Assembly: GCF_018128225.1 (NCBI RefSeq)
Contig: NZ_CP072377.1
Span: 682,001 to 746,000, forward strand
Origin: Leptotrichia sp. oral taxon 218
GTDB taxonomy: Bacteria > Fusobacteriota > Fusobacteriia > Fusobacteriales > Leptotrichiaceae
DNA: 64,000 nt
Direction of reading: 5' to 3'
This document shows positions 2,473-58,054 of this stretch, piece after piece. The notes under the pieces were generated by a model. It was not told the DNA's origin. It did not search any database and saw only the letters and a list, made by a program, of their open reading frames with translations. Every line of letters begins with the position of its first letter. Within the stretch, counting starts at the first letter, position 1. Both the position numbers and the translations under genes were made by a program.

Positions 2473-2500
2473 TTTTAAGGATTAAAAAAACAAATAAAAC

Positions 2501-2529: not shown

Positions 2530-2565
2530 ATCAATAATTAATTATATCTAGGAGGAATATTTGGT

Positions 2566-3138: not shown

Positions 3139-3154
3139 TGGGAATTGTAGATAG

Positions 3155-3186
3155 ATCACAGTTATTAATTTAGCTGTGATTTTTTA
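3155..3186 (+). terminator. Intrinsic terminator of the lipoprotein moron
   Basis: Stem ATCACAG/CTGTGAT with a 12-base AT loop, then a T run. The 31 bases 3155-3185 are identical to 46335-46365, the terminator of the giant autotransporter gene. Confidence 0.85.
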
Positions 3187-3205
3187 TTTTTAAGAGGTAG
3201 TAGAA

Positions 3206-3520: not shown

Positions 3521-3532
3521 AGGTGGTATGTG

Positions 3533-4247: not shown

Positions 4248-4249
4248 TA

Positions 4250-4888: not shown

Positions 4889-4900
4889 GAGAGTGATAAA

Positions 4901-5977: not shown

Positions 5978-5995
5978 TGAAAAGGAGTTGATAAA

Positions 5996-6433: not shown

Positions 6434-6450
6434 GAAAAGGTAGGTACGAA

Positions 6451-8997: not shown

Positions 8998-9016
8998 TTA
9001 CGAAAGGAGTTTCAAT

Positions 9017-9574: not shown

Positions 9575-9592
9575 AAAAGGAAATTAAAAAAA

Positions 9593-11073: not shown

Positions 11074-11075
11074 AT

Positions 11076-13102: not shown

Positions 13103-13112
13103 GAGGTAAAAA

Positions 13113-14063: not shown

Positions 14064-14076
14064 AAAGGAATTAAAA

Positions 14077-14805: not shown

Positions 14806-14816
14806 AGGGAGAAATT

Positions 14817-15305
14817 ATGGAATTAGAAAAAGACAAACTATATATATGTTTTCACAAACCTAAACATCTTGTGGGACATTTAATAGCATTGTGGACACTT
14901 GGAAGATATTCACACGCCGAATTTATTTACAATAATCAAGTATTTTTATCTAATCCTGGAGGAGTAAGAACACAAAAATTTAAATATTTGAAAAATATGG
15001 ATATTTATGAGTTAGATAGTAATATTGATGCGAAAGATATTATTGAGTTTTTTAAAACAGCACAAGGCAAAGGATACGACTATCTAGGAATTTTAGGACA
15101 GTTTTTTTATGCTAATAAGGTACAAGATGACGATAGATATTTTTGCAGTGAGTTTTGTTTAAATGCAATAGATTATGCTTTACAGTTCACCTTGACATAT
15201 AAATTGAAATCGTTAAAGGACAGGGTTGGCTATCAGTTCAGTCCAGTCAAATTATACAAATATTTAAAAGATATGGAATTAATTAAAGAAAAGGAAGTGG
15301 CATAG
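14817..15305 (+). CDS. Phage NlpC/P60-like (permuted papain-fold, YiiX-type) protein
   Basis: A 162-residue protein with the circularly permuted NlpC/P60 pattern: histidine first in Y-S-H33-A-E-F, then cysteine in Y-F-C110-S-E-F-C114 and a downstream hydrophobic C-terminus. A G-K-G-Y-D-Y-L-G-I-L-G segment near 84-94 is also typical. Members act as cysteine peptidases, amidases or acyl hydrolases on lipids or peptidoglycan. It opens the lysis cassette, abutting the muramidase gene, so a cell-wall or membrane target is likely, but the true substrate is not shown. Confidence 0.6.
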   Translation: MELEKDKLYICFHKPKHLVGHLIALWTLGRYSHAEFIYNNQVFLSNPGGVRTQKFKYLKNMDIYELDSNIDAKDIIEFFKTAQGKGYDYLGILGQFFYANKVQDDDRYFCSEFCLNAIDYALQFTLTYKLKSLKDRVGYQFSPVKLYKYLKDMELIKEKEVA

Positions 15306-15833
15306 ATGAACGACAGATTTAACAAATTTTTAGATTATATTTTTAAAGTTGAAGGCGGTTATACTAATGATAAAAACGATAAAGGCGGAGCAACAAATTT
15401 TGGAATAACACACGAAGATGCTAAAACATATCTAGGGTATATAGGAGATATGAGGAAATTTAAAAAATCAGATGCTGAAAAGATTTATGAAAAAATATAC
15501 TACAAGGGGAATCATCTTGACAAAATAGTAAGTGATAAAATAGCTCTTTCAATTTTTGACTGGATTGTAAATAGTGGAAAAACAGGAAAGAAGAAAGCTC
15601 AGATTGTAGCAAATAAATTTGGTTCAAATTTAACTGTAGATGGAATAATTGGACCCAAGACAGTTGAAGCTATTAATAAAATAAATCCTGAAACTTTTTT
15701 GAAAGAATATCATGAAATGCAAAGAAATTTTTATAAATATTTAGTAAGTAAGGATAAAACACAACAAGATTTTTTGACTGGATGGTTGAATCGTGTTGAT
15801 AGAAAAGAAAAATATTTAAAGGAGATGATATAA
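15306..15833 (+). CDS. Endolysin, GH108 N-acetylmuramidase
   Basis: A 175-residue protein with the GH108 start F-x-x-I-F-K-V-E16-G-G-Y, where the Glu in the EGGY motif is the catalytic acid, followed by D-K-G-G-A-T-N-F-G-I-T. The C-terminal half (from about 80) fits the PG_binding_3 domain usually paired with GH108 (D-W-x-V-N-S-G and V-D-G-I-I-G-P-K-T near 85-120). It would cut the glycan strand between MurNAc and GlcNAc at lysis. There is no signal peptide, so it should need a holin. Confidence 0.9.
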   Translation: MNDRFNKFLDYIFKVEGGYTNDKNDKGGATNFGITHEDAKTYLGYIGDMRKFKKSDAEKIYEKIYYKGNHLDKIVSDKIALSIFDWIVNSGKTGKKKAQIVANKFGSNLTVDGIIGPKTVEAINKINPETFLKEYHEMQRNFYKYLVSKDKTQQDFLTGWLNRVDRKEKYLKEMI

Positions 15834-16376
15834 ATGAAAGTAATATTGAATGTAGGACATGGTGGAGTGAAAAGAGATCCAGGAGCGTGTGGAAATGGTT
15901 TTGAGGAACACGCTTGGAATAAGGATTTTGTGGAAAACTATGTAAAAAAAGAATGTGAAAATCAAGGTGTAGAGTATGTTGTAGTTTATCAAGAATACTA
16001 TTCTACTTTGCCACAAAAGATAAATGGACTTGCAAATAAAGGAGATGTGACACTATCATTTCATTTAAATGCAGCTGATAAAACAGCTTCAGGTGCTGAA
16101 ATGTTATATTGGCACAACTCAAAAAGGAGTAAGGAACTTGCGGAATTTTTACAGGAAGCTAATATTAAAGCAACGCATTTGAAAGATAGAAAAATCTTGC
16201 CTCGTAATTACGAAGACAGAGGGGCAACTCTTTTGAGAAAAACTTCAACGCCTTGTGTCATAGTTGAAAGCGGATTTATAACAAATTCAGAAGACATGGA
16301 AAAATTGGAAGCAACCAAAAAGGAGCTTGCAAAATATTATGTAGCGGCAGTAAAGAATTATTGGAAAAACAATTAA
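15834..16376 (+). CDS. Endolysin, N-acetylmuramoyl-L-alanine amidase (Amidase_3)
   Basis: A 180-residue, single-domain zinc amidase. Zinc ligand candidates are H9 (N-V-G-H-G-G), E24 or E25 and H77 (S-F-H-L-N-A); the catalytic Glu is E144 (V-I-V-E-S-G-F). It cleaves the bond between MurNAc and the stem peptide. It begins directly at the base after the muramidase stop, so the phage carries two separate lysins with different cut sites side by side. Confidence 0.9.
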   Translation: MKVILNVGHGGVKRDPGACGNGFEEHAWNKDFVENYVKKECENQGVEYVVVYQEYYSTLPQKINGLANKGDVTLSFHLNAADKTASGAEMLYWHNSKRSKELAEFLQEANIKATHLKDRKILPRNYEDRGATLLRKTSTPCVIVESGFITNSEDMEKLEATKKELAKYYVAAVKNYWKNN

Positions 16377-16500
16377 AAAATGACTTTATTACAAGCCGTA
16401 TGAGAATAAAAGGTTGCCTAGTGAGTTAAAATTGACTGTAGGGCTTGCTAGGTGGCTTAGAATTGATTTTAAGAAAAAGAATAAAATAGGAGATGATAAA

Positions 16501-16827
16501 ATGGATAAATTAGCAGCAAAAATATATTTAACAGGTAAAATTTTAGAATTGGGAAAGACTTTAATCTATAAAACAGAAATAGTTGCAAAAGGAAAAGTTG
16601 GAGCAGAAAAGTTTAAGCAGGTGTATGAAGGTTTTTGGGATAAGTTAGAAGATCTGTTGGAAAAAGAAAAATCAATTGATAGAAAATGGATTCCTGACTT
16701 CGCAGAAGAGATTGGTGAAGAAGTTCTAACAGAAGTTTTAAAGGAAGCTAGAAAGACATTTGATTTAAAAGTTATACTGCAACAAATTTTTGATGAGGAA
16801 AAAGCAGGAAATAAAAACATATTATAA
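16501..16827 (+). CDS. Hypothetical phage lysis-region protein
   Basis: A 108-residue, helical, charged protein with no membrane segment. The start at 16501 follows AGGAGATGAT. The same frame is open upstream as far as 16384 and reads as plausible protein (Y-K-P-Y-E-N-K-R-L-P-S-E-L-K), but with no ATG. The position between lysins and a membrane protein suggests a lysis or release role; no motif supports a specific function. Confidence 0.5.
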   Translation: MDKLAAKIYLTGKILELGKTLIYKTEIVAKGKVGAEKFKQVYEGFWDKLEDLLEKEKSIDRKWIPDFAEEIGEEVLTEVLKEARKTFDLKVILQQIFDEEKAGNKNIL

Positions 16828-16845
16828 CAGCATAGGAGAACAGGA

Positions 16846-17475
16846 ATGTATTTTAAAGAAATTAGTGATTTAGGTGCTTTAGTGGTTATATGTGGAATAT
16901 TTTTATATTTTGTGAAGAAAATTTTTGACTTGGTAATAAACGATATTAAAAACAGCTATGAAAAAATAATCAGTGAATTACAACATGCTGAAGCAGGGCG
17001 GGCAGTTCTTATAGCAGGGAATGAAAAACTTATTGAAGTTCTTAACAGGTTAGAAAGTAGATTAAGAACGGAAAAAATAACAGGAGAGGCACTTGGGATA
17101 ATGCTTAATACTAAAGGAAGTCAAATGTGTCTTTGTATAAAGAATGAAGCAATAGATGTAATTAATACAAACAGTATTGATAAAAATTGGGATTCTATAG
17201 AAAATGAAATGGATAATCTTTATGATGATAAAATATTAAAATTTCAGAAAGAATATCATAATTTAATGGAATTCGACACGTTTTCAGAAATTAATAAGCA
17301 GTTTATTGTAGAGCTTGAGAAGTCAAAAGATGGAATAATATCAATATTGTCAAACTTAAAAGAGGCACAGGAGCTTATGGATTATAGAATAGCGATAAGA
17401 AGAGTGAGTGCTGTTATGGATAAGACTAAAAAGAATATGCACAAGATAATAGCAGAAATAACAAATGAAGGATAG
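16846..17475 (+). CDS. One-TM phage membrane protein, possible holin
   Basis: A 209-residue protein with one N-terminal hydrophobic segment (residues about 9-31) followed by a charged helical domain. The N-terminus resembles BhlA/UviB-type small holins (one TM then charged coil), but the C-terminal ~170 residues are much longer than in that family. It is the last gene of the lysis cassette and no other membrane protein is nearby, so it is the best holin candidate. A strong terminator follows at once. Confidence 0.5.
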   Translation: MYFKEISDLGALVVICGIFLYFVKKIFDLVINDIKNSYEKIISELQHAEAGRAVLIAGNEKLIEVLNRLESRLRTEKITGEALGIMLNTKGSQMCLCIKNEAIDVINTNSIDKNWDSIENEMDNLYDDKILKFQKEYHNLMEFDTFSEINKQFIVELEKSKDGIISILSNLKEAQELMDYRIAIRRVSAVMDKTKKNMHKIIAEITNEG

Positions 17476-17497
17476 CCAGAAATGGCTATCTTTTTTT
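17471..17497 (+). terminator. Intrinsic terminator ending the phage late operon
   Basis: Perfect eight-base-pair stem GATAGCCA/TGGCTATC with loop GAAA and a seven-T tail, starting at the stop codon of the last late gene. Confidence 0.9.
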
Positions 17498-17601
17498 GAA
17501 TGAAAAAGTCACAATATTTTTTATAAGGTGGTAAAAAAATACGAAAATTTTAAATCTCTTACATCATTAAAATATCTTGTCTATATTTTATAAAAAAGTT
17601 A

Positions 17602-17630
17602 TTGGTAAAATATAAAACATGTTGTATAAT
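17602..17630 (+). promoter_or_regulatory. Strong promoter at the prophage right side
   Basis: TTGGTA (17602-17607), 17-base spacer, TATAAT (17625-17630). The spacer holds an imperfect palindrome centred on ACATGT. No coding region with a ribosome binding site follows within 100 bases; a hairpin with a T run does. The rest of 17498-17784 is AT-rich with no gene. Confidence 0.65.
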
Positions 17631-17636
17631 AGTCTT

Positions 17637-17696
17637 GTGAAAAAAGAAGAAATGAGAAAAATAAAACAAAAGAGGCTGAAATATGTCTCTTTTTAA
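17637..17696 (+). ncRNA. Candidate small RNA (promoter to terminator, about 60 nt)
   Basis: Starts about seven bases after the TATAAT at 17625. It contains an A/G-rich single-stranded stretch, then stem AAAGAGGC/GTCTCTTT (17669-17693, one G-T pair) with a T run. No open frame of size. It may be a short regulatory RNA or just the remains of a gene leader. Confidence 0.35.
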
Positions 17697-17755
17697 ATTT
17701 TAGTACCTTTTTAGTACTTTTATACTTTATAAATACTTTCAAAATTAATAAATAA

Positions 17756-18207
17756 AATGTTCAGATTAAATCCAACTATTATAGATGATGTACAGAAGTG
17801 GCTGGGCTACTAAGCAAGGACAGGAAAGAATACTGGCAATTGACCTGAAAAGGGAAGGATTTGATGAAATAGTGAAAAATGCTGTACTTTCATCTTTTAG
17901 GGAAGTTTCTGATTTATCTAAGGAAGAATGGAAAGAAAAATTGGAAAATTCAGAAGTAAGATGTCAATGGGATCCGGACAGGGATATTTACGGCAATCCA
18001 ATAGGAAGAAGAGCGATACAGTTAGGTATAAAGGGAGAAATTGTGAAAAAATATGTAAATGAGTGGATTGTAAATATAACGGATATAACAGAGGAAGTTA
18101 TTGAGATAAGAAATAGTATTCAAAGTGGAACTTTTTCAGAGTCTATGCTTCCTAAAGAGAAAAAGTATATTGGGGAACATTTTAAAAGTGTCCATAATTT
18201 TGTATAA
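17756..18207 (+). pseudogene. DUF4291 gene remnant, 5' decayed and 3' end replaced
   Basis: From 17785 the frame reads M-M-Y-R-S-G-W-A-T-K-Q-G-Q-E-R-I-L-A-I-D, the highly conserved middle of DUF4291 proteins, and continues through W-D-P-D-R-D and Y-V-N-E-W-I-V. Intact members are near 190 residues and have about 60 residues before this point (ending W-I-K-P-x-F-L-W). Here the upstream bases still encode I-K-S-N-Y in another frame, with stops, so the 5' part is present but broken by small deletions. The last ~10 codons, from 18180, come from an inserted inverted-repeat element. DUF4291 function is unknown. Confidence 0.7.
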
Positions 18208-36511: not shown

Positions 36512-37306
36512 TTATTTTTCATAAGTATAAATTCCAAGTCTGTTATTAAAAATGTAAAAGAATGGAATAAACAATTTTTTCCAGCCAGGAAGATGATGTT
36601 TCATTTCATCAGTAAAATTAATAAGTCCAGTTTGCTTTAATTTTGGATTCAATTTTACAACTTCGCTTCCATCTTTCACGCCCCAACTAAATTTTACTTT
36701 CATATTTTTTAAGGTATCATGTTTTTTGCTCATTTTAACTGTTCCTTTATAGAGCAAGTCAAACTGTGCTTCAAAAGAATCAAAATTATCAGTTAATATT
36801 TCCAAGAACTGTTTAATTTGCTGTTCTTCAAAATACATTAATACACCTTCCGAAATAATAAGCAATTTTTTCCCTTCTAGTTTAATATCCTTTGTCCATG
36901 CTGAATCAAATGCAGATTTTGCAATATCTGTAACTCTTTCGTTTGGCTCGAAAAAGAGCTTTCGTTTTTCGATAACTTCTGGCAAGTCAAGATTATACCA
37001 TCTTATTTTTGCATTATCTATTCGTAAAAATCTTGTATCTAATCCACATCCAATCGACACAATTACACAATCTGGATATTTTGTTATAAACTTTTTTACT
37101 TCATTATCCATCACTTTCGCCCGTGAAAGAACTCCATAATACGAAGCCCATGCATTTTTAAATTTCGAGAAGTCATAATCTATTTGAGAAATTATTTCTT
37201 CAGATTTTTTGTCATTTAAAATCGGATTTTCGCTTTTAGCATCGGTCGCTCGCATATACAGAGTAATAAGCATAGTTTCTGAAATATTATTAAGTTTTAT
37301 TTTCAT
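36512..37306 (-). CDS. Leucine-carboxyl-methyltransferase-family (TcmP-like) O-methyltransferase
   Basis: A 264-residue SAM-dependent methyltransferase. The LCM-family motifs are A-x-x-x-Y-Y-G-V-L-S-R-A near 55-65, V-S-I-G-C-G-L-D-T-R-F near 82-92, W-Y-N-L-D-L-P-E-V near 102-110 and S-E-G-V-L-M-Y-F near 152-159. Relatives methylate carboxyl or hydroxyl groups of small molecules or a protein C-terminus; the target here is unknown. The ATG at 37306 is chosen for AAGGAGG. It sits on the opposite strand between the two halves of the thiamine ABC system, next to transposon debris, so it may be an insertion. Confidence 0.8.
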   Translation of the reverse strand: MKIKLNNISETMLITLYMRATDAKSENPILNDKKSEEIISQIDYDFSKFKNAWASYYGVLSRAKVMDNEVKKFITKYPDCVIVSIGCGLDTRFLRIDNAKIRWYNLDLPEVIEKRKLFFEPNERVTDIAKSAFDSAWTKDIKLEGKKLLIISEGVLMYFEEQQIKQFLEILTDNFDSFEAQFDLLYKGTVKMSKKHDTLKNMKVKFSWGVKDGSEVVKLNPKLKQTGLINFTDEMKHHLPGWKKLFIPFFYIFNNRLGIYTYEK

Positions 37307-37500
37307 ATTTCTTTCCTCCTTCAAATATTTTGTTTATCAAACTATTCGATATAATTATACCAATATTTATTAAAAATGCAAATTTTTAAGGTAGAAATAA
37401 AATAGATTTCTTAATTTTAAATTACTATGAATTTTTTACAATTGAAATTATGAATATTCTTTGTTTCATTTGTGTTCATTTGTAAAAAAAGATTTTTTTG

Positions 37501-37566: not shown

Positions 37567-38310
37567 ATGAATGAGATTAAATTGCAGGTTAAAAATGTGT
37601 CTGTCGAATTTGAAGGGAAAAAAATTATTGAAGACATTTCGATTGACTTAAATAAAGGTGAACTAGTATGTATTTTAGGAACGAGCGGAGTTGGGAAAAC
37701 TACTTTATTTAATGTAATTTCTGGATTGATTAGTCCAACTTCTGGAGAAGTTTTTTTAGACGGAAAAAATATTTTGGAAAATTCTGGAAAAATAAGCTAT
37801 ATGCTTCAAAAAGATTTGCTTTTGCCGTTTAAGACAATTATTGACAATGTGTCCTTACCTTTGGTTATAAAAGGCGTAAAAAAATCTGAGGCAAGAAAAA
37901 GAGCGCAAAAATATTTTGCAGAATTTGGACTTTCTGGGACAGAAAAAAAATATCCTAATCAACTTTCAGGTGGAATGAGGCAACGAGCAGCACTTTTGCG
38001 AACTTATATGTTTTCATGCGAAGTAGCTTTACTAGATGAGCCATTTAGCGCATTAGATGCTATAACGAAGCGAAAAATGCAAAACTGGTATTTGAATATA
38101 ATGGAAAAAATAAAGTTATCAACGCTATTTATAACTCACGACATTGACGAAGCAATTTTAATTTCAAAAAGAATTTATATAATTTCTGGAAATCCAGGAA
38201 AAATTACAAAAGAGATAAAAGTTGATTTGCCAAAAACTGGGAATGGCGATGAAGTGACTTTAACAGAAAAATTTATAGAATATAAAAGAGAAATATTAAA
38301 GCTCTTATAA
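37567..38310 (+). CDS. ABC transporter ATPase, SsuB/ThiZ type
   Basis: A 247-residue ATPase: Walker A G-T-S-G-V-G-K-T-T near 38-46, Q-loop L-Q-K-D near 80, signature L-S-G-G-M-R-Q-R near 137, Walker B V-A-L-L-D-E-P near 156, H-loop T-H-D near 192. It is of the sulfonate/nitrate/pyrimidine-importer type, the partner class of the ThiX/ThiY-like genes 1.4 kb upstream, which lack an ATPase gene. It has its own promoter without a TPP aptamer. It is followed after 20 bases by the EndoU toxin gene. Confidence 0.88.
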   Translation: MNEIKLQVKNVSVEFEGKKIIEDISIDLNKGELVCILGTSGVGKTTLFNVISGLISPTSGEVFLDGKNILENSGKISYMLQKDLLLPFKTIIDNVSLPLVIKGVKKSEARKRAQKYFAEFGLSGTEKKYPNQLSGGMRQRAALLRTYMFSCEVALLDEPFSALDAITKRKMQNWYLNIMEKIKLSTLFITHDIDEAILISKRIYIISGNPGKITKEIKVDLPKTGNGDEVTLTEKFIEYKREILKLL

Positions 38311-38330: not shown

Positions 38331-38939
38331 ATGAAAAAAAATAAGATTTTAAGTATTTTAGTTGTGTTTATAGTTGCACTTTTTGGATTCGGAAAAAGTT
38401 ATTTGGATAGCGTGGCTAAAAAAAATGCGGATAAAAATTATGTAAAAGGTTTAGTTGCAGAAAGTAACGATAAATCCGAAAAGTCTTTGAGTTCTAAAAA
38501 AAATAAAAATTATAGAAAAAAAGATATCGGATCAGTTGAGAGCAGTAAATATAACATAGATTACGAGCATGTAATCGGAGGAGATCAAAATCATTCGGGA
38601 AAAGTTACTGGCGGACATTCGCTTTTAAAAGGTGATGTCAGAATTGTGAAAAAAATTGGACAACCTGCAAAAAATGGAGTCTATAGAGCAACTGTTGAAA
38701 TTAGGGATTCTAGCGGAAAGTGGCAGCAAAAGACTTCAAATGGCGGAGTTAATACGATGTTTCCAAGTGATTGGGACGAAGCTAGAATAATTAGTGAAAT
38801 AAATTCAGCTTGGGAAAATAGAAGAGATGTTCCTGGAAGAGATAAAAATATGTGGCAGGGTTTAAGTAAGAGCAAGGTTTTAATAAGAGGCTATAAAACT
38901 CCAAGAATTACGGCATATCCTGTTTATGAAAACAGATAA
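38331..38939 (+). CDS. Exported EndoU-family RNase toxin
   Basis: A 202-residue protein. Residues 6-20 are a hydrophobic signal or anchor; 25-70 are a Lys/Ser/Asn linker; 75-202 match bacterial EndoU (PF14436): Y-E-H80-V-I-G-G-D, G-G-H96-S, N-G-V-Y-R-A-T-V-E-I (115-124), M-F-P-S-D-W (143-148), W-Q-G-L-S-K-S-K-V-L-I-R-G-Y (175-188) and the end T194-A-Y196-P-V-Y. His, His and Thr/Tyr are the active-site set of CdiA EndoU toxins that cut tRNA or other RNA. Here the domain is not at the end of a giant CdiA but on its own with a Sec-type N-terminus. The next gene is a likely immunity gene. Confidence 0.85.
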   Translation: MKKNKILSILVVFIVALFGFGKSYLDSVAKKNADKNYVKGLVAESNDKSEKSLSSKKNKNYRKKDIGSVESSKYNIDYEHVIGGDQNHSGKVTGGHSLLKGDVRIVKKIGQPAKNGVYRATVEIRDSSGKWQQKTSNGGVNTMFPSDWDEARIISEINSAWENRRDVPGRDKNMWQGLSKSKVLIRGYKTPRITAYPVYENR

Positions 38940-38963
38940 ATTTTGAGAAAGGTGAATACGACA

Positions 38964-39407
38964 TTGAGAGTAAAATTTAGTTATTGTAAAGATGGAGATT
39001 TTGGAATTATGCCAACTTCTGAAGTAAAATTTTTTGATGCAGAAGAATTTGGTGGAAAAAAAATAATAAAATTTAAAGATTTGGAAAAAAAGCAGAATGA
39101 ATATACAAAATTTTTGATAACAGCGATTATGGAAGATTTTCCAGAAGAAAAAATGGTGCAAGATTTTTTGGATGAAGTGAATAAAGTTGCACAAGGAAAA
39201 TTGAATGAAACTTGTTGGGACGGTCAGTCATTTCAGCATAAAATAACGAGGGATAAGGTGAGTTTTGAGCATACAATTTTTGGAATTTGTGAAGAATATC
39301 CAGAATGGAGCTGTCATTTTGACGAATATAAAGCTGTTCTTGAACTTTGGGGAGAATTTTTGGAGATGAAACCAAGTTTGAGAAATGAAGTTGTGGTTGA
39401 AGTTTAA
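38964..39407 (+). CDS. Probable immunity protein for the EndoU toxin
   Basis: A 147-residue, soluble, acidic protein with no signal peptide, directly behind the toxin gene. Its sequence (F-S-Y-C-K-D-G-D-F-G start, Trp- and Phe-rich C-terminal half) fits no family I can name. Position, cytoplasmic nature and opposite charge to the basic toxin are as expected for an immunity protein. The start is set at TTG 38964, about 11 bases after AAAGG; a longer frame from TTG 38943 is possible but has no site. A terminator closes the operon. Confidence 0.6.
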   Translation: MRVKFSYCKDGDFGIMPTSEVKFFDAEEFGGKKIIKFKDLEKKQNEYTKFLITAIMEDFPEEKMVQDFLDEVNKVAQGKLNETCWDGQSFQHKITRDKVSFEHTIFGICEEYPEWSCHFDEYKAVLELWGEFLEMKPSLRNEVVVEV

Positions 39408-39621: not shown

Positions 39622-39770
39622 TGTAGTGTATAATAAAAAGTTTTTTTTGAGGAAATAAAAAATTTCACTTATCACTCACTTAAAAAAATTATTCTTGAAA
39701 TTTTTTTATTTTCAAAAAAAATTCTTTGAAATGTAAAACATATAAAAACAGTTTTGAAAGGAAAAAGATC

Positions 39771-42700
39771 ATGGGAAGCAATAATTTAAGACAACTAAAA
39801 AAAGATTTAAAAGCTTTTGCCAAAAGAGTAAAAGACTTTAAATACACAGATTCAGCATTAATTACGTTTCTTTTGACAGGAATTATAACGTTAGGAATTT
39901 CAAACGTGACATTTTCTGTCGAAGATGCGATAGCTACTCAAACTAGACAGATAAACAGCTCAATAAAAGACATGAGGTTGCAATTCAAAAAAGCAAGAAA
40001 TGAAAATGATAAATTGCTTAGAGATACAAACTTAGAACTAATTCAGTTGATGGAACAGGGAGATCATGTTGTAAAATCACCTTGGAGCAGCTGGCAATAT
40101 GGTATGAATTATTTTAACAACAATTGGAATGGAACATATAAGGGAAGAGGAGATAAGAAAGAAAAATATCCTTACGAAGGAAGATTTGAGAGAAGTAAAA
40201 ACTCATTTGAAAGATATACTTCGCCTTTAAGTAGCCATTACGGAGATTTATCTTTGGGAGCAAACAGACGTTCAGCCTCATCAAATTTAAGAAGTGGAAT
40301 TCCTTCATCATACGGAATAGCAAGTAACGACCCAGCACAAGAACCAATTGTGGAAATGAATGTGGAAGCCTCAATCAGGCCTAAAACAGTAAAGATAGAT
40401 ATTCCAGATTTGGGAATAAGAGCGCCACAGTTAAATGCTTTGGGAGTACCTAATTTATTGCCGCCTTCATTGGAGATACCTGCACCTTCTATAGTTACAG
40501 TGCCAAATAAACTTCCTTCAGTAAGCGCAACACCTATATCTGAATATAAGTTTAATCCACATAATGTACTTTCAACAGAATCTCCTTGGAGCACAAAACC
40601 TCAAGATGGTAAAAGTTATACTTATTACTCGGGATGGGATCCGGGTACAGCACGACCTGCAAATAAATCAGTATACCAATATAATGCTAGTGGAACTTTA
40701 ATGACACCCGCCGCAAGCAGAGTAACAAATGTATTTTATTTGAATACAAATACTCAACCAAATGGAACGCAGCATTGGAAATTAAGTGATGCAACAGTTC
40801 ATGTTGCTGGAGATGCAAACTCTTATCCTAAAGGAACTATTGCACTTCATACAGTCTGGGATGGAGAAATTGAAAATGTGACAGGATATTTGCATGGCTT
40901 GGGAACTTTTATCTCAACAGAAGCATGGCATTCAGGAAAAGTAAAATTAACAAGTACAACAGTTAATATAGATGGAACTAACAACAGTGTGTTTTATGGG
41001 TATCCAACAACTTATTTTGGATTGGCAAAGACAAGCAATTATAGTGCGTATAAACAAAGAGGAGGCTTTACAGGAACTCTTGATGTTAATATTAATAATG
41101 CAAATGATAATTATATTTATTCTGTAATGGGTGTGCAAGGAAGTATGGCAATTAAAAGTAGCGGAAAATACACAATTAATGGTAATAAAAACCTTGTATA
41201 TTTAGGGTTAGGATATGTTCCTAACTGGCAAAATTTAGTAGGCAGTGGAAGTATAGAAAAGGATTATAAAAATGCAACACCTACAGATGCTAAAATGACT
41301 CCGTACATAAAAATAGGAAACAGTACAATTAACGGTAATTCAAATGTTTCGTTATTTTTTGACAATAGACATGGAGATTCATCAATACCACACTATAATG
41401 ACGGTACTGCAAAAGGACAAAGTGGACAGGACTGGGCAAAATCTATAATTGGTATTTATCAAGGAGAAATTGATGTCGCAGCGAATATAGGAGATAGTTC
41501 TGCTTCAGTAGGAAATGTTGGAGTATATTCAAAATCAGGGCAAAGGGTTGAAATAGTTCCTCAAGACGATTTGGGAGCACCTTCACCTGATACAACTTTT
41601 CCTGACTATAACATTGATAAAATTCACAACTTGGAAATAGGGGCTGCTAAAATCTATTTTGGTAAATATTCTACAGATGGTATAATGTTTGCGGCGGATC
41701 AAGGTTCAGTAATTGATGTTGCAAGGCCACAAAAAGCAGATGCCAATGCAACAGGGACTACACCGTATTTAGAAATCACTCCTTCTACAACAATTCAAGA
41801 TTCAGCTTCAGCATTGACAAGTTCAGTTGATGATACTTCAAACCAGGCAGCAACAGGAACTGTGATTGCATATGCGACAGGCACATGGGATAATAAAAAT
41901 ATGCCTGGAGGGGTAGCAGCTGGACTAAGAGGACAAGGAAGTAGAATCAACCTTTATGCTCCTGTAATTATGTCAGGAAGATCAGATGTTACAAGAGCAA
42001 TACCAAATCCCTCTGTAGCATTGTTAGGAGACAATAAAGGTATTGTTAATGCCAAAGAAGATGTAACAGCAAATGGATATGGCTCTATAGTAGCATTGGC
42101 GAAAAGAAATGGAGTTGTAATTGCAGATAAAAATATAACTGCTAAAGATACAGGAGCATCAGGAGATTCAGCCACAAAACCTTACTTATACACAAATATA
42201 GGAGCATATGCAGGTTCTGGCGGAACTGTTACTATAGCAGGAAATGCTGATATTCATGGTATTGGTGGAATGGCAGATGGCAATTCTTCAGTTGTAAACT
42301 TAAATGGAACAGGAAATACAATAAAAACAGGAAAAGATGGAGCGTTGGTGGCAACTAACGGTGGAACAGTTAATTTTGCAGGAGGAATAATAGACCACTC
42401 TGAAAATGAAGCGAAAGATCATGATAAAAGTACACCGATGTTTGCTAATAATACAGGGCACGTAAACTTTACAGGACATACTACTATAAATATTGCCAAT
42501 GGAATATTAATGCCTGGACAAGCATCAGATTATACAGCAGCTTCAGGTACAGCTACAAAATACAATGGAATGCAACATGTAGATGTAAACTTGACAGGAG
42601 ATGGAGTAGTATTGAGTTCACATGACGGACATGCGCCAGTTCATTGGACAGGCGGAACAATAGCCAATGTGATTCAGAGTGAAATGAAACTTAATAGTTT

Positions 42701-45700
42701 CAATGATGGTGGACATTCATACAAAATTTACTATATAAATGGCGATTTCTTTATAGATGGAAATATAGATTTAGACAGTACAACAGAAGCCTTTAACAAA
42801 TTTGTTCTTGCAAGAGAAAAGGTAACAATAAGTCCAGGAGTAACAGTAAGCTCTGCTACGGGGAAAGGACTTGCATTGGGATCTAATAAACATGCTACGA
42901 CAAATATGGATTCAGGATATACAAATAAAGGAACTATAAATATAACAGGAGGTACACCAACTGGAACAACAGCTATTAATACAAGTTATGGATACCTGGA
43001 TAATCAGAGTGCAATAAATATGGACAATGGAATAGCTGCCTATGGAGTAAATGGAAGTAAATTTACAAATAATTCCACAGGAACAATAAACATTACAAAT
43101 GGCGGAGTTGGTATGGCAGCATTTGCTTCAGCAACTTCAGGATTACAGGCATATGGAACTGATGCAAAAGTATTAACTGCAACTGACAAAGTTCTTGAGT
43201 TAGATAATAGAGGTACAATAACAGTAGGTGGAAATCAGTCAATAGGACTTTATGGAGAAACTAACGATATTGCAGGACGTGGGCTGGTAGCTTCAAATGG
43301 AAGTATCACAAACACTGGGAAAATCATAATGACAGGAGATGCAGCAGTAGGAATACTAGCAAAAAGAGCGACTGTCAATCTTGGTGGAACAGGAAGTTCA
43401 GATATAACAGTAGGAACAAATGGAATAGGTGTGTATGCTGAAAATTCGCCTGTAAATATTGTATCTAATACAGGAATAGAAGTAAAAGACAAAGGTGTCG
43501 GAATATTTGTTAAAAATGATGGAAGCACATTGACAGGTTCAGCACTAGAAATAAAATATACAGGTTCTGCAAATAATTCGGCAGCAGGAATTTTCTATGA
43601 AGGTGGAGCAGGACATAATGTTACAAATACCACAGATGTAAATATAGTAAACAGCGGAAGTAATAAAGGAATCGTTGGTGTATATATGAACAATGGTGGA
43701 ACCCTAACAAATGCAGCAACAATAACAGATAAAAGCGGAAAAGCTTATGGAATCTATTCTGAAGGTGCAGATGTGGTAAATAACGGAACACTAAATATTG
43801 GAAACAAAGGTAAGGGAATACTAAGTACAGGTGGAAACGTTAGATTAACAAGCAGTTCTGTAATTAATCTGGGAGAAGATGAAGCAATTGGGGTATACAC
43901 AAAAGGAACAGGAAACAACGTAACAGCGGATGCAGGTTCTACAATGGCAATTGGTAACGGTTCATATGGATTCATAAATGAAGGAACAGGAAACACAATA
44001 ACAAGTAATATGACTTCACAGACAGTTGGAGATAACACAGTCTTCGTATTCTCAAGAGATACATCAGGAACAGTGATAAACAATACACCGTTAACTTCGA
44101 CTGGTTCACTAAACTATGGACTTTATTCAGCAGGAAATGTAGTAAATAATGCAGATATTAACTACAGCTCAGGAATAGGAAACGTAGGAATTTACAGTAT
44201 AAATGGAGGAAGTGCGGTAAATAATCCAGGTGTCTCAATAACAGTAGGAGCTTCAAATTCTGATCCGACAGCTAACCAGTATGCAATAGGAATGGCGGCA
44301 GGATATGTAGGGGATGCGACAACACCGGCTTATACAGGAAATATAGAAAACAAGGGAATAATTAATGTAGTAGGACCATACAGTATAGGAATGTATGGAG
44401 TAAACAAAGGAACAAAGGTAGTAAACAGTGGAATAATTAACTTAAATGCAAGCAACACAACAGGAATGTACCTTGATAACGGAGCAGAAGGAATAAATAA
44501 CGGAACAATCAAGTCAAATGGAACAGGATTAAAGAAGGTAGTCGGAGTTGTAGTTAAGAACGGTTCGACAATAGAAAATAACGGAACAATTGATATTAAT
44601 GCCGATGAAGCGGTAGGATTACTTTCAAAAGGAAATGTGGCAGGACAGAATCCAGGAATAATCAAGAACTACGGAACATTGACTATAAGAGGAGCAGGAT
44701 CAGTAAATACTCAGATTCCGCAGCCAGGACATGAAATATCAAAAGATATGGCGGGAATTAAGATACATGCGCCATCAGGTTCATCAACAGCGACAATAAC
44801 AGTAAACGGAGTGCCAGTAGTACCAGAAGTAGCGACAACGACAGGAGAAGAATACAAACCAATGGAAGTTTCAACAATAGGAATGTATATAGACACTTCA
44901 AACAAACGGTTTACAAGACCAATAGTTGGATTAAGTAATCTGAGTACGTTAAAGAATGCAGATTTGATTATAGGGACAGAAGCGGCACAAAATACAACAA
45001 GTAAATATATTCAATTAAGTCCACAAATACTTGCACCATATAATCAGATGATTTTAAATAATCCACAGATTGGAAAATGGAATATTTATTCAGGTTCACT
45101 TACATGGATGTCAAGTGTAGCACAAAACCAAACAGATGGAACAATAGAAAATGCTTACTTAGCAAAAATTCCATACACTAGATGGGCAGGAAATGAAAAT
45201 ACTCCTGTAAATTCTACAGATTCATATAATTTCCTAGATGGACTTGAACAAAGATATGGAGTTGAAGGTTTAGGAACTAGAGAAAAATCATTATTTGACA
45301 AGTTAAATGGAATAGGAAATAATGAAGAAGTTTTATTATATCAGGCAGCTGATGAAATGATGGGTCATCAATATGGAAATACTCAAATGAGAATAAATGC
45401 AACTGGAAGTATGCTTGATAAAGAATTTAGATATTTAAAACACGACTGGAGAAATCCATCTAAACAAAATAATAAAATTAAAGTATTTGGAATGAGAGAT
45501 GAGTATAATACAGATACAGCTGGAATTATTGACTACACAAGCAATGCTTATGGAGTAGCTTATGTTCATGAAGATGAAGCTATTAAGATGGGAAATTCTC
45601 AAGGTTGGTATGCTGGAGCTGTGACAAATAGATTTAAATTTAAAGATATAGGACATTCAAGAGAAAATCAAACTCAAATTAAAGCAGGAGTCTTTAAAAC

Positions 45701-46316
45701 AATGTCACCAGAAAATGACCATAATGGATCATTACAATGGACAATTGGTGGAGATGTATTTGCAGGTATTAATGAAATGAAACGTAGATATTTGGTTGTA
45801 GATGACATATTCCAAGCAAAATCAAATTATAATTCTTATGGAGCGGCTTTAAAGACAGATTTAGGATATGATATAAGACTTTCTGAAAGAACCCATTTGA
45901 GACCTTATGGAGCTTTGAAAATGGAATATGGGAAATTTAGCAATATAAAAGAAAATTCTGGAGAAATGAGATTAGAAATCAAAGGAAATGACTATTTCTC
46001 AGTAAAACCAGAAGCTGGTGCAGAATTTAAATATGTTCAGCCATTGGCAGTAAGAACAAATCTATCTGTTGGACTTACAGCGGCTTATGAAAATGAGTTA
46101 GGAAAAGTTGGAAATGTAAATAACGAGGGAAGAGTTAGATACACAAATGCAGACTGGTTTGGAATAAGAGGAGAAAAAGACGATAGAAAAGGAAATGGTA
46201 AGTTTGACCTTAACATCGGAGTAGATAACACTAGATTTGGTGTTACAGTAAATGCTGGATACGACACTAAAGGTAAAAATGTAAGAAGCGGTGTAGGATT
46301 TAGATTAATTTATTAG
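39771..46316 (+). CDS. Giant type V autotransporter
   Basis: A 2181-residue surface protein. Residues 1-49: long N-terminal extension (M-G-S-N-N-L-R-Q-L-K-K-D-L) plus signal helix (28-48), a form typical of Leptotrichia/Fusobacterium autotransporters. 50-95: coiled coil. 98-140: aromatic W-x-S-W-Q-x-G-M-N-Y-F...Y-K-G-R-G-D-K block. 150-270: Pro-rich linker. 270-1850: beta-helix passenger with many N-x-G-T-I and A-V-G-I/G-I-G-V-Y repeats. About 1900-2181: barrel, ending G-F-R-L-I-Y. It probably acts in adhesion or aggregation; no protease triad is visible. The ATG at 39771 has GAAAGGA; the upstream in-frame TTG at 39726 is not used. Confidence 0.93.
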   Translation: MGSNNLRQLKKDLKAFAKRVKDFKYTDSALITFLLTGIITLGISNVTFSVEDAIATQTRQINSSIKDMRLQFKKARNENDKLLRDTNLELIQLMEQGDHVVKSPWSSWQYGMNYFNNNWNGTYKGRGDKKEKYPYEGRFERSKNSFERYTSPLSSHYGDLSLGANRRSASSNLRSGIPSSYGIASNDPAQEPIVEMNVEASIRPKTVKIDIPDLGIRAPQLNALGVPNLLPPSLEIPAPSIVTVPNKLPSVSATPISEYKFNPHNVLSTESPWSTKPQDGKSYTYYSGWDPGTARPANKSVYQYNASGTLMTPAASRVTNVFYLNTNTQPNGTQHWKLSDATVHVAGDANSYPKGTIALHTVWDGEIENVTGYLHGLGTFISTEAWHSGKVKLTSTTVNIDGTNNSVFYGYPTTYFGLAKTSNYSAYKQRGGFTGTLDVNINNANDNYIYSVMGVQGSMAIKSSGKYTINGNKNLVYLGLGYVPNWQNLVGSGSIEKDYKNATPTDAKMTPYIKIGNSTINGNSNVSLFFDNRHGDSSIPHYNDGTAKGQSGQDWAKSIIGIYQGEIDVAANIGDSSASVGNVGVYSKSGQRVEIVPQDDLGAPSPDTTFPDYNIDKIHNLEIGAAKIYFGKYSTDGIMFAADQGSVIDVARPQKADANATGTTPYLEITPSTTIQDSASALTSSVDDTSNQAATGTVIAYATGTWDNKNMPGGVAAGLRGQGSRINLYAPVIMSGRSDVTRAIPNPSVALLGDNKGIVNAKEDVTANGYGSIVALAKRNGVVIADKNITAKDTGASGDSATKPYLYTNIGAYAGSGGTVTIAGNADIHGIGGMADGNSSVVNLNGTGNTIKTGKDGALVATNGGTVNFAGGIIDHSENEAKDHDKSTPMFANNTGHVNFTGHTTINIANGILMPGQASDYTAASGTATKYNGMQHVDVNLTGDGVVLSSHDGHAPVHWTGGTIANVIQSEMKLNSFNDGGHSYKIYYINGDFFIDGNIDLDSTTEAFNKFVLAREKVTISPGVTVSSATGKGLALGSNKHATTNMDSGYTNKGTINITGGTPTGTTAINTSYGYLDNQSAINMDNGIAAYGVNGSKFTNNSTGTINITNGGVGMAAFASATSGLQAYGTDAKVLTATDKVLELDNRGTITVGGNQSIGLYGETNDIAGRGLVASNGSITNTGKIIMTGDAAVGILAKRATVNLGGTGSSDITVGTNGIGVYAENSPVNIVSNTGIEVKDKGVGIFVKNDGSTLTGSALEIKYTGSANNSAAGIFYEGGAGHNVTNTTDVNIVNSGSNKGIVGVYMNNGGTLTNAATITDKSGKAYGIYSEGADVVNNGTLNIGNKGKGILSTGGNVRLTSSSVINLGEDEAIGVYTKGTGNNVTADAGSTMAIGNGSYGFINEGTGNTITSNMTSQTVGDNTVFVFSRDTSGTVINNTPLTSTGSLNYGLYSAGNVVNNADINYSSGIGNVGIYSINGGSAVNNPGVSITVGASNSDPTANQYAIGMAAGYVGDATTPAYTGNIENKGIINVVGPYSIGMYGVNKGTKVVNSGIINLNASNTTGMYLDNGAEGINNGTIKSNGTGLKKVVGVVVKNGSTIENNGTIDINADEAVGLLSKGNVAGQNPGIIKNYGTLTIRGAGSVNTQIPQPGHEISKDMAGIKIHAPSGSSTATITVNGVPVVPEVATTTGEEYKPMEVSTIGMYIDTSNKRFTRPIVGLSNLSTLKNADLIIGTEAAQNTTSKYIQLSPQILAPYNQMILNNPQIGKWNIYSGSLTWMSSVAQNQTDGTIENAYLAKIPYTRWAGNENTPVNSTDSYNFLDGLEQRYGVEGLGTREKSLFDKLNGIGNNEEVLLYQAADEMMGHQYGNTQMRINATGSMLDKEFRYLKHDWRNPSKQNNKIKVFGMRDEYNTDTAGIIDYTSNAYGVAYVHEDEAIKMGNSQGWYAGAVTNRFKFKDIGHSRENQTQIKAGVFKTMSPENDHNGSLQWTIGGDVFAGINEMKRRYLVVDDIFQAKSNYNSYGAALKTDLGYDIRLSERTHLRPYGALKMEYGKFSNIKENSGEMRLEIKGNDYFSVKPEAGAEFKYVQPLAVRTNLSVGLTAAYENELGKVGNVNNEGRVRYTNADWFGIRGEKDDRKGNGKFDLNIGVDNTRFGVTVNAGYDTKGKNVRSGVGFRLIY

Positions 46317-55612: not shown

Positions 55613-58054
55613 ATGATAAAATCAATAAATAGCATTACTTTACGACATTTAAACGGAGTTTATGTCCAAGAGCAAAAACTAAATATTAAAAAAGCGAGTA
55701 GAAACAATACTTTGAGTATTGCTGAAATGGCTACAATTACAAAAAAATTTCAAGGTTATGGATATACTTTTGAAAAAAAGTTGGCACAGACAATTTTTAA
55801 AGTTGACAGGGACTATGCCATAGATTTATGTCGTGAAATGCTGGAAAATATTGAAGATTTTAAATCGGATAAAGGATATGAAGTTTTTTACAAAGATTTT
55901 CCAAAAGAAGTGATGAATATGGAAGAGGCTGATATTTACATAAATCAGATGCTTCATTACTGGTTTGGATATATTCCGAAACATAAAAATTTAAAAAATA
56001 AAAATATTGGATATGAAAAAAATGAACTAGCACAGTTAGTTGAACTTTCTCATTTAAAATTAGTAGCTGATTCTGATATTGAAAAATTATTTTATAATTT
56101 GCTTTCTAGCAATGTCACTTTGTCAAGTCAATATTTGGAAGATGTTTGCTTTTTATCAAACGGATTTTCTGAGAAAGAATTGGAAGAATATTCTGAAAAT
56201 ATTTTGATGAAGGAAACACTTACGACACTATCAAGTTATGTTTGGGAAAAAAGAAAAATTTTGATTGGAAATTTTGACACGGCTACGGATGTTTTGAGGT
56301 TTATTACGAAATTATCGAATGGTGAATTGAATACGAAATATATTTGCTTTGCATATTTTAGCAGAACGGAGTTAGCTCAAATTGTAAAAAAATTGGAAAA
56401 AATAAAAAATAGTTTTCCAGATATTAAAAGATACAAAAAACCGTGGCACAAATTTTTTAAATTAAATGCGAAAAAAATTAATTTGAAAAAATATCCAAAT
56501 GTTCAAAAAATTGTGAATATGCTGTTTTCAAAATTTGAATATGAAACGCCAAAAGGTTATTTTGACAAAGTGAAAAAAAATATTCCAAATATGTCAAATA
56601 AAGATTTGGAGAAATTTATTGGACTTTATTTAAAATTTTCTGGCGATTATGCTAGACAAGTTTTGTCGCTTTTGAATATTTCGAATAAAAAACAATATCA
56701 TATTTTGATAAATGGTCTAAAAAAATGCATGAAAGATGTAAATACAAGAGTTTTACTGCAACTTTACGACAGACTTTTAAATTTACAGAAAAAAAAACAA
56801 CTTGAAGAAATTAAAAAAAATAAAGAAATAGAAATAGAAATAAAAATAGAAAAAATTAAAAATTCGCAAATTACAGAAGAAGAAAAAACTGTGGAAGAAA
56901 TTTTTGAGAAAAAAAATTCACCTGAAAAACGCTCAAAAATTAGAAATGTTTTCAGAAATCTTGTTTTCAAGGAAGAACAGAAAGATGAATCTGAATTGGA
57001 AAAGCAAAAAAATATTGAAGAACAAAAAAATAAAACTGAAATTATTGAAACGCTTGAAAAAGAAAGAATTAGAAATTTACAGATGGAAATTCCAAGAGTT
57101 GTGAATAGCAAAGGAACTTGGAGAAAAATAGACGAAACGATATTTTTAAGTGATGAATTGATAGAAGACTTGATGGAAGTTGTAAAAAATGGAATTATTG
57201 AAAAGTTAAAAGAAAAAGATTCACTAAAAAAAGTATTTGTCGATGAAAGTTATAAAAATATTGCAGTTACAACGAGCGAAAAAGATAGCAACATTTCACT
57301 TCGTCCGATGACAAAAGGTTCAAAAATCAAATTTAACAGCGATGCCGAAGTCCTGAGATTTTTTGTTGGTTGGAAAAATTTTGAAAAAGATGGACTAAAA
57401 ATTCGAACAGATATTGATTTATCCGCTGTTTATTTCGATAGTGAGTTTAACTTTTTGAATTCACTTGCATATTATAATCAAATTGAAGAAGGTTTCGCTT
57501 TTAGTGGAGATATTGTGGATGCGCCTGATGGAGCACTGGAATTTATTGATATTTATGATTTGGAGAAAATTAAGAAAAAAGGAATTAATTATATTTTAAT
57601 GACGGTTAGAAGTTACAATGGTTTTAATTTTAAGGAAATTAACAGCGTATTTGCGGGAGTTTTAGAACTTACAAAAGAGGAGTCGCAAGATAGAAAAAAT
57701 ATGTTTAGCGCCGCAATTAGTCAAGGTTTTCAGATTTTATCGAAAAATTATACAACTAGTACAATTTTGGTGGATTTACAAAAATCAGAATACATTTGGA
57801 TTGATATGAATTTGCCTGTCAGTAAAAATTATAGAGATCAAAATAGACTTCAAAATAATGAAGCAGCTTATCTTGAAGATATTTTGAAATATTTTGTAAA
57901 CAAAGAATATATGACAATGTATGATTTGATTGAGATGAATGTGAAAGCTAGAGGAACAAAGGTTTTTGATAAAGAAGTGGCAGATGTCATATTTGATAGA
58001 ATTGATGTAGATAATCCGATTCCACTTGCACAAATTTTATCGAATTTTTATTAA
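55613..58054 (+). CDS. Large TerD-domain protein (MXAN_6230/SCO0854-like architecture)
   Basis: An 813-residue cytoplasmic protein. The N-terminal ~390 residues are helical, with the F-P-K-E-V...H-Y-W-F-G-Y-I-P segment near 100-120 seen in the large TerD-associated family. Residues about 390-490 are a Lys/Glu coiled coil. From about 590 a TerD-like domain reads I-R-T-D-I-D-L-S-A-V-Y-F-D, then F-S-G-D-I-V-D-A-P-D-G-A-L-E-F-I-D-I-Y near 640-660. TerD domains bind calcium and belong to stress or phage-defence-linked ter systems. No other ter gene is nearby. Confidence 0.7.
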   Translation: MIKSINSITLRHLNGVYVQEQKLNIKKASRNNTLSIAEMATITKKFQGYGYTFEKKLAQTIFKVDRDYAIDLCREMLENIEDFKSDKGYEVFYKDFPKEVMNMEEADIYINQMLHYWFGYIPKHKNLKNKNIGYEKNELAQLVELSHLKLVADSDIEKLFYNLLSSNVTLSSQYLEDVCFLSNGFSEKELEEYSENILMKETLTTLSSYVWEKRKILIGNFDTATDVLRFITKLSNGELNTKYICFAYFSRTELAQIVKKLEKIKNSFPDIKRYKKPWHKFFKLNAKKINLKKYPNVQKIVNMLFSKFEYETPKGYFDKVKKNIPNMSNKDLEKFIGLYLKFSGDYARQVLSLLNISNKKQYHILINGLKKCMKDVNTRVLLQLYDRLLNLQKKKQLEEIKKNKEIEIEIKIEKIKNSQITEEEKTVEEIFEKKNSPEKRSKIRNVFRNLVFKEEQKDESELEKQKNIEEQKNKTEIIETLEKERIRNLQMEIPRVVNSKGTWRKIDETIFLSDELIEDLMEVVKNGIIEKLKEKDSLKKVFVDESYKNIAVTTSEKDSNISLRPMTKGSKIKFNSDAEVLRFFVGWKNFEKDGLKIRTDIDLSAVYFDSEFNFLNSLAYYNQIEEGFAFSGDIVDAPDGALEFIDIYDLEKIKKKGINYILMTVRSYNGFNFKEINSVFAGVLELTKEESQDRKNMFSAAISQGFQILSKNYTTSTILVDLQKSEYIWIDMNLPVSKNYRDQNRLQNNEAAYLEDILKYFVNKEYMTMYDLIEMNVKARGTKVFDKEVADVIFDRIDVDNPIPLAQILSNFY

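What the first reader, a model, noticed from the sequence alone, without database searches (positions are those of the whole stretch)
38331..39407. Stand-alone exported EndoU RNase toxin with a linked immunity candidate
Bacterial EndoU toxins are best known as C-terminal tips of CdiA or other very large polymorphic toxins. Here the whole EndoU domain (H80, H96, T194, Y196, plus the GVY, FPSDW and TAYP blocks) sits on a 202-residue protein with only a signal/anchor and a linker. A cytoplasmic 147-residue protein of no known family follows, and both share an operon with an ABC ATPase. The immunity family appears undescribed. The next gene is a giant autotransporter, so the whole stretch may be a competition locus.
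Basis: partly seen in the sequence, partly recalled or inferred. Interest (0 to 1): 0.7.

Follow-up and report, generated by a model that had tools for sequence, protein, structure and literature searches.

The report
Core exported ribonuclease and its inhibitor
A small RNA-cutting enzyme with a membrane-targeting head and a partner gene that looks like its inhibitor sit side by side in every Leptotrichia genome checked, as a fixed pair rather than as one of the swappable toxins this enzyme type is usually known from.

Summary
38331-38939 encodes 202 aa with a complete bacterial EndoU domain (PF14436, E 1.3e-23) behind a hydrophobic head and a Lys/Asn-rich linker; a 147-aa gene follows (38964-39407, TTG start).

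The pair occurs in 13 of 13 held genomes of the genus (Leptotrichia) and 6 of 20 others of the family, adjacent in all 19. His80, His96, Lys134 and Thr194 are invariant.

The partner has no curated family but is homologous to the gene directly behind Neisseria MafB-EndoU toxins (hhalign 96.9%, 97.5%; 27 control ORFs at most 4.5%). A MafI was shown to block an EndoU MafB (PMC4287609, passages).

The 'competition locus' is not supported: the ABC ATPase (thiamine-type uptake) and the autotransporter adjoin the pair in 3 of 19 genomes; for the autotransporter two could not be judged. The EndoU domain is under strong purifying selection.

Best reading: a fixed, exported or membrane-anchored RNase with a cytoplasmic MafI-type inhibitor, working like barnase-barstar. 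Topology, binding and activity are inferred, the target is unknown; no structure was obtained.

The parts
38331..38939 (+). EndoU ribonuclease gene, 202 aa: head, linker, EndoU domain
   Evidence: PF14436 E 1.3e-23; 19 orthologues counting the window
38331..38402 (+). Residues 1-24: positively charged N-terminus and hydrophobic stretch (signal anchor or signal peptide)
   Evidence: Hydropathy windows in all 19 orthologues, mean KD 2.0-2.75, net +3 to +9 on the N side; no lipobox and no consistent AxA site seen by eye in the alignment; no signal-peptide program was available
38403..38549 (+). Residues 25-73: fast-evolving Lys/Asn-rich linker
   Evidence: Alignment; net charge +1 to +12 in 19 orthologues; head plus linker 25-96% identical over 12 pairs
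38550..38936 (+). Residues 74-202: EndoU catalytic domain with H80, H96, K134, T135, T194, Y196
   Evidence: PF14436 match; invariant columns
38964..39407 (+). 147-aa partner without a visible signal peptide, MafI-type inhibitor candidate (TTG start)
   Evidence: 19 of 19 adjacency; hhalign to the ORFs behind two Neisseria MafB-EndoU genes 96.9% and 97.5%
37567..38310 (+). ABC ATPase of a thiamine-type uptake system; neighbour, not part of the system
   Evidence: Pfam ABC_tran; lies with thiamine-binding protein, permease and NMT1-type binding protein in six other Leptotrichia loci; next to EndoU in 3 of 19
39726..46316 (+). Giant autotransporter; neighbour, not part of the system
   Evidence: PF03797 E 2.1e-24; matched behind the pair in 2 of 18 relatives, 2 of 18 not assessable

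Best explanation
The two genes are an EndoU ribonuclease and its cytoplasmic protein inhibitor. The ribonuclease is made with a hydrophobic head that sends it into or across the inner membrane (inferred), so that the EndoU domain ends up on the periplasmic side or outside. The inhibitor stays in the cytoplasm and binds the nuclease before export or if it comes back (inferred from MafI). It therefore works like barnase-barstar, or like a MafB-EndoU/MafI pair stripped of the delivery domain, and it has become a fixed gene pair of Leptotrichia and some sister genera instead of a swappable tip. Shown here: EndoU homology, intact catalytic residues, constant adjacency, homology of the partner to the gene in the MafI position, purifying selection. 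Inferred: export and topology, direct binding, RNA cleavage. Unknown: the RNA target and the benefit.
For: PF14436 E 1.3e-23 with near-complete coverage. Catalytic columns H80, H96, K134, T135, T194, Y196 invariant in 19 of 19. Pair present in 13 of 13 genus genomes and 6 of 20 other family genomes, adjacent and in the same order in all 19; reading frames overlap by 1-4 bases in 5 of 18 relatives. Partner homologous to the ORF directly downstream of Neisseria MafB-EndoU: hhalign 96.9% (E 1.5e-10) and 97.5%, against at most 4.5% for 27 mechanical ORFs of 110-175 aa. The closest EndoU domains in the plasmid collection are those same MafB tips, 53.5% and 49.6% identical. With the A7 profile 23 of 35 matches in 98 genomes lie directly behind an EndoU gene; 29 of 35 EndoU rows have an A7-type or DUF5376 gene directly behind (one G045 gene makes two rows). 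A MafI blocks an EndoU MafB and co-purifies with it (PMC4287609, passages). EndoU domain dN/dS 0-0.12 in 11 of 12 pairs, undefined in one.
Against: The hydrophobic stretch is followed by more positive charge in most orthologues, so the positive-inside rule favours N-in/C-out only weakly. The A7 profile was built partly from genes chosen for lying beside EndoU, so 23 of 35 is not independent evidence; of the 16 A7 matches outside the 19 core genes only 4 lie behind an EndoU gene. Six of 35 EndoU rows, all in genus g9, have another kind of gene behind. The sequence of the experimentally tested MafI of strain NEM8013 was not available to compare. Many of the 27 control ORFs may not be real genes.
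Confidence: 0.72

Rival explanations
1. An interbacterial toxin proper: the EndoU leaves the cell (vesicles, lysis or an unknown outer-membrane route), enters bacteria outside the Leptotrichiaceae and degrades their RNA. The immunity gene protects all kin, so it acts between genera, not between strains.
For: The nearest EndoU domains found are MafB tips; overexpression of one of four MafB toxins of NEM8013 gave an advantage in competition (PMC4287609, abstract passage; it does not say which one). CDI-type EndoU tips with related downstream genes exist in sister genera.
Against: No delivery domain; among the neighbours scanned no secretion gene is conserved beside the pair (many flanking ORFs were not scanned); little variation of the nuclease domain; a genus-wide immunity removes a within-genus advantage.
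Confidence: 0.3
2. A resident exported RNase for RNA scavenging or for periplasmic or surface RNA turnover, with a barstar-like safety inhibitor in the cytoplasm.
For: Core gene pair among housekeeping genes (phosphoglucomutase or holB type outside the genus; thiamine-type uptake or, in L054, a W/Y tRNA synthetase inside); strong purifying selection on the nuclease.
Against: No regulatory or metabolic gene is consistently linked; EndoU domains in bacteria are otherwise described as conflict toxins (PMC3482391, passages).
Confidence: 0.35
3. A membrane-tethered toxin-antitoxin module with the EndoU domain facing the cytoplasm and the 147-aa protein as its antitoxin.
For: Short gaps or overlapping frames; positive charge on both sides of the hydrophobic stretch in most orthologues; partner without a visible signal peptide.
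Against: N-out/C-in insertion of a head with net charge +3 to +9 before the hydrophobic stretch would be unusual (rule recalled); the EndoU MafB of NEM8013 is exported by its signal peptide (PMC4287609, passages).
Confidence: 0.15
4. An orphan toxin tip left behind by a decayed CDI or Rhs-type gene.
For: Tips without a delivery part exist in the same genome and family (own second EndoU at G000:C1:1503388; L073; array in a genus-g9 genome).
Against: 19 orthologues share the same short architecture and full catalytic set, and the domain is under strong purifying selection.
Confidence: 0.03

Closest known systems
Neisseria MafB-EndoU / MafI (PMC4287609)
   Same: EndoU domain 49.6-53.5% identical; gene directly downstream homologous; N-terminal export head
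   Different: No MafB domain (PF06255) here; no alternative cassettes seen beside it; present in all 13 genomes of the genus
CDI (CdiA-CT EndoU / CdiI), e.g. CdiA-CT STECO31 (PMC9086364, passages)
   Same: EndoU nuclease with His-His-Lys type catalytic residues and a small partner protein
   Different: 202 aa instead of the tip of a giant protein
Barnase-barstar (recalled)
   Same: Small stand-alone exported RNase with a cytoplasmic inhibitor
   Different: EndoU instead of a barnase domain; not compared by sequence here
DUF5376 (PF17346)
   Same: Five of seven phylum matches lie directly behind EndoU genes; similar length and C-terminal pattern
   Different: The window protein itself has no PF17346 match; hhalign of its family to DUF5376 members 4%, of the intermediate A2 family 76%

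Membership tests
Bacterial EndoU nuclease (PF14436) | Match above the curated cut-off | tested here: met
   84.2 bits against 25.3
Bacterial EndoU nuclease (PF14436) | Two catalytic His, Lys and C-terminal Thr/Ser | tested here: met
   H80, H96, K134, T135, T194 invariant in 19 of 19; assignment of K134 rests on my alignment
Bacterial EndoU nuclease (PF14436) | RNase activity, uridylate preference | not testable with these tools
   Needs an assay
Polymorphic toxin system | Long N-terminal delivery part with exchangeable C-terminal tip | tested here: not met
   202 aa, head and linker only; EndoU domain 76-100% identical over 12 ortholog pairs
Polymorphic toxin system | Cognate immunity gene directly downstream | tested here: met
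   Position and conservation 19 of 19; immunity itself not tested
MafB/MafI | MafB N-terminal domain PF06255 | tested here: not met
   PF14436 is the only match to the window protein up to E 1; MafB in L124 has both
MafI-type EndoU inhibitor family | Homology to the ORF directly downstream of MafB-EndoU | tested here: met
   96.9% and 97.5%; 27 control ORFs at most 4.5%
MafI-type EndoU inhibitor family | Blocks the cognate EndoU by direct binding | not testable with these tools
   Needs co-folding of two chains, co-expression and a binding assay
CDI (CdiBAI) | EndoU as the tip of a giant CdiA | tested here: not met
   202-aa protein
CDI (CdiBAI) | CdiB partner | tested here: inconclusive
   None among the 8 window proteins scanned around the pair; PF03865 found nothing in the own genome, but the search's control rang nowhere either
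DUF5376 (PF17346) | Match above the curated cut-off | tested here: not met
   No PF17346 match at E up to 1

The most novel reading that the evidence does not exclude
A conflict-toxin cassette of the MafB-EndoU/MafI kind was captured by an ancestor of Leptotrichia and its sister genera, lost its delivery module, and was domesticated into a resident system: a membrane-anchored, periplasm-facing EndoU ribonuclease with a barstar-like inhibitor, kept throughout the genus for a physiological role such as RNA turnover at the cell surface in the oral biofilm, rather than for killing competitors.
Probability: 0.35. Interest if true: 0.65.

Novelty: new variant of a known kind. Interest (0 to 1): 0.5.

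Why it matters
Bacterial EndoU domains are mostly described as tips of large, variable delivery proteins. A short, nearly constant, genus-wide version with a constant partner would be an EndoU counterpart of barnase-barstar and a test case for how conflict toxins become resident enzymes. It also gives a likely function to an uncurated protein family that spans Leptotrichiaceae and Neisseria MafI-position genes, and suggests that DUF5376 is an EndoU immunity family.

Tried and rejected
Rejected: ABC ATPase as toxin exporter (ATPase of a thiamine-type uptake operon; adjoining in 3 of 19). Autotransporter as delivery partner (matched behind the pair in 2 of 18 relatives, absent from 14, 2 not assessable). 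DUF5376 membership of the window protein (no match; hhalign 4%), although a bridge exists: the A7 profile reaches a DUF5376 gene of G029 at E 3.7e-5. Phage or viral origin: no relative of the partner among 51 pattern matches in viral contigs, none of the toxin in phages. Solved relatives: no match of toxin, partner or their relatives better than E 0.15 in eight PDB sequence searches; these did not reach the known EndoU structure 5HKQ either, so they are insensitive here. Genomes of genus g9 have EndoU tips with unrelated downstream genes (6 of 35 EndoU rows), and so do the Cronobacter and Priestia records, so the partner family is not universal for EndoU. The genome-contig scan returned 4 loci. 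The tree puts the 19 core and 2 MafB domains together with 93/97 support, under the tool's star threshold and with a long-branch warning, so the MafB origin is a lead, not a result. The hhalign controls were meant to be up to 80 ORFs; only 27 met the length limits in the seven sequences used. The PF03865 (CdiB-type) search of the own genome is uninformative. An apparent giant open frame behind the pair in one relative proved to be masked sequence, not a gene.

Full report
Observation. The two ORFs are where the finding puts them. The first, 38331-38939, is 202 aa and matches Pfam EndoU_bacteria over residues 79-198 with E 1.3e-23. NCBIfam gives nothing for it up to E 1. The second ends at 39407. 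Its mechanical start is TTG 38943 (154 aa), but the orthologue in G012 starts with ATG at the place of TTG 38964, so 147 aa is the better reading. It has no Pfam or NCBIfam family (best Pfam E 0.15; best NCBIfam E 0.056).

Organism. The window is G000:C1:682001-746000 of a 2.17 Mb genome in one contig. Two genomes of the same genus have contigs of exactly the lengths of Leptotrichia hongkongensis JMUB5056 and Leptotrichia sp. oral taxon 879 records, so the genus is Leptotrichia.

Conservation of the pair. Among 60 related genomes (G000-G059) 19 hold the partner gene, each at E 1e-28 or better, and all are in the family: 13 of 13 in the genus and 6 of the 20 other family genomes. EndoU is found in 24 of 60. 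In all 19 genomes with the partner the EndoU gene lies directly upstream on the same strand. Over the phylum as held (98 genomes) the partner profile A1 finds the same 19 plus weaker relatives; 20 genomes match at E 0.001, and the one outside the family (G045) is at 9.5e-4. Gaps between the two genes are 9-45 bases in 13 of 18 relatives and overlaps of 1-4 bases in 5 of 18; in the window the gap is 24.

Surroundings. The ATPase at 37567-38310 belongs with a thiamine-binding protein (PF01910), a permease and an NMT1-type binding protein. In 6 other Leptotrichia loci (L053, L058, L060-L063) these four genes lie together, 1-3 kb upstream of EndoU, with one or more opposite-strand genes between. 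Only in the window, L057 and L064 does the ATPase adjoin EndoU; in L054-L056 and L059 the operon is not in the fetched stretch. The autotransporter matches behind the pair in L057 (67% identity) and L064 (pieces of 86% and 63%); 14 relatives with 5.7-6.8 kb readable behind the pair show no match at E 1e-6; L069 has only 0.6 kb and one further relative is mostly masked there. Outside the genus the gene directly upstream is a phosphoglucomutase type in four tested loci (L065, L066, L068, L070), L069 has an ORF of the same length that I did not test, and L067 has a holB-type gene upstream. The pair is therefore a unit of its own in changing, housekeeping-type surroundings, as far as the neighbours were scanned.

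Selection. Over 12 ortholog pairs the EndoU domain is 76-100% identical with dN/dS between 0 and 0.12 (undefined in one pair), the head plus linker 25-96% with 0.055-0.46, and the partner 39-95% with 0.04-0.57. The partner has the higher dN in 10 of 12 pairs; in the two pairs of the window with L057 and L064 it has the lower. The nuclease is kept and the linker drifts. This is the reverse of what a diversifying toxin tip would show. The estimates are simple pairwise counts, and dS is high in several pairs.

Active site. H80, H96, K134, T135, T194, Y196 are invariant in 19 of 19 orthologues. The published residues of CdiA-CT STECO31 are His, His, Lys with a following Thr (PMC9086364, passages). 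The assignment of K134 to that Lys rests on my alignment. Among 15 other EndoU domains aligned, K is kept in 13.

Head and topology. All 19 orthologues carry a hydrophobic stretch near the N-terminus with net +3 to +9 before it and +1 to +3 in the 15 residues after it, except -2 and 0 in two. No lipobox and no consistent signal-peptidase site is seen by eye in the alignment. A signal anchor with the EndoU domain outside the inner membrane is the likeliest reading, but the charge rule is weak here and no signal-peptide program was available.

Relatives of the partner. The A1 family aligns to a second Leptotrichiaceae family A2 (129-132 aa) with 99.5%. One A2 member lies behind a 522-aa EndoU protein in G017. 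Searching plasmid records with the EndoU domain matched 14 records, best of all two Neisseria gonorrhoeae records of chromosome size with 53.5% and 49.6% identity. The first is a MafB protein (PF06255 E 4.3e-165 plus PF14436 E 3.3e-28); the second was read as an ORF only. The ORF directly behind each is homologous to A1: 96.9% (E 1.5e-10) and 97.5%. The same comparison with 27 mechanical ORFs of 110-175 aa gave at most 4.5%; some of these may not be genes. With the enlarged profile the gene behind a Pseudomonas EndoU gives 88.8% and the Listeria one 66.1%; the Cronobacter, Priestia and three genus-g9 ones give 3.2% or less. DUF5376 members give 28.5% or less, but A2 against DUF5376 gives 76% and the A7 profile reaches one DUF5376 gene at E 3.7e-5. 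I take DUF5376 as a probable distant branch, not as proven.

Adjacency over the phylum. With the A7 profile 23 of 35 matches in 98 genomes lie directly behind an EndoU gene; DUF5376 5 of 7; 29 of 35 EndoU rows (one G045 gene makes two rows) have an A7-type or DUF5376 gene directly behind, and the 6 without are all in genus g9. Outside the 19 core genes it is 4 of 16 A7 matches; nine of the other 12 are orphan A2-like genes. A7 contains members picked for their position, so these counts illustrate rather than test. On a Fusobacterium hwasookii plasmid an EndoU gene is flanked on both sides by identical DUF5376 genes.

Function known for relatives. In N. meningitidis NEM8013 an EndoU MafB degrades RNA with a preference for uridylates, needs its signal peptide to appear in the supernatant, is blocked by the downstream MafI, and co-purifies with it (PMC4287609, passages seen). 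I could not compare the sequence of that MafI with the window protein. Zhang et al. list SUKH, SuFu and Imm28 as EndoU immunity families and a signal-peptide (MafB) export mode (PMC3482391, passages).

Mechanism. Shown: homology, intact active site, constant linkage, selection. Inferred: export through the inner membrane by the head, cytoplasmic inhibitor binding at the active site, RNA cleavage. The logic is that of barnase-barstar (recalled). What the enzyme is for is open: RNA turnover outside the cytoplasm, or action on bacteria of other genera. The first fits the fixed, little-varying nature better; the second fits the toxin relatives better.

Literature. No paper in the held library mentions DUF5376. 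Leptotrichia with EndoU gives 4 papers whose titles are on microbiomes and biofilms (listing only); Leptotrichia with contact-dependent growth inhibition gives none; a wider five-term search gave 1,293 papers of which I saw 10 listed; EndoU with Fusobacteri- and toxin gives 15, of which I saw 10 listed. The library holds open-licence papers only, so this does not show absence from print. Michalska et al. 2018 is not held.

Limits. No structure could be predicted because the machine was busy on all 23 tries. The tree groups core and MafB EndoU domains at 93/97, below the tool's own mark, with a long-branch warning.

Noticed in passing
window 1-18207: Prophage with a contractile tail: minor head protein, tail sheath, tape measure, baseplate, tail fibre and fibre assembly matches in PHROGs for 7 of 10 proteins scanned.
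   Followed up: partly
L002:1357-2828 (EndoU match G000:C1:1503388-1503738): Second EndoU ORF in the same genome, without a delivery part, followed by a DUF5376 domain (E 1e-9) with weak ankyrin-repeat matches behind it. The EndoU counterpart in G012 has an in-frame stop.
   Followed up: partly
L071:7688-8080 and L072:7032-7421: Two orphan genes of the partner's A2 family in the own genome, without an EndoU gene beside them; nine such A2-like orphans among the 98 genomes.
   Followed up: partly
L120:2524-4436: Small Fusobacterium hwasookii plasmid with an EndoU gene between two identical DUF5376 genes.
   Followed up: partly
L083:3080-16279: In a genus-g9 genome (G027), a row of many short, similar toxin-tip-like and partner-like ORFs, including three EndoU matches with other downstream genes.
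   Followed up: no
window 55613-58054: 813-aa ORF with no Pfam match at E 1e-5, downstream of riboflavin and saccharopine-dehydrogenase type genes.
   Followed up: no
window 36512-37324: Leucine carboxyl methyltransferase-type gene on the opposite strand between binding protein and ATPase of the thiamine-type uptake operon in the window, L057 (with two more ORFs) and L064, but not in the six other Leptotrichia loci that hold the operon.
   Followed up: partly
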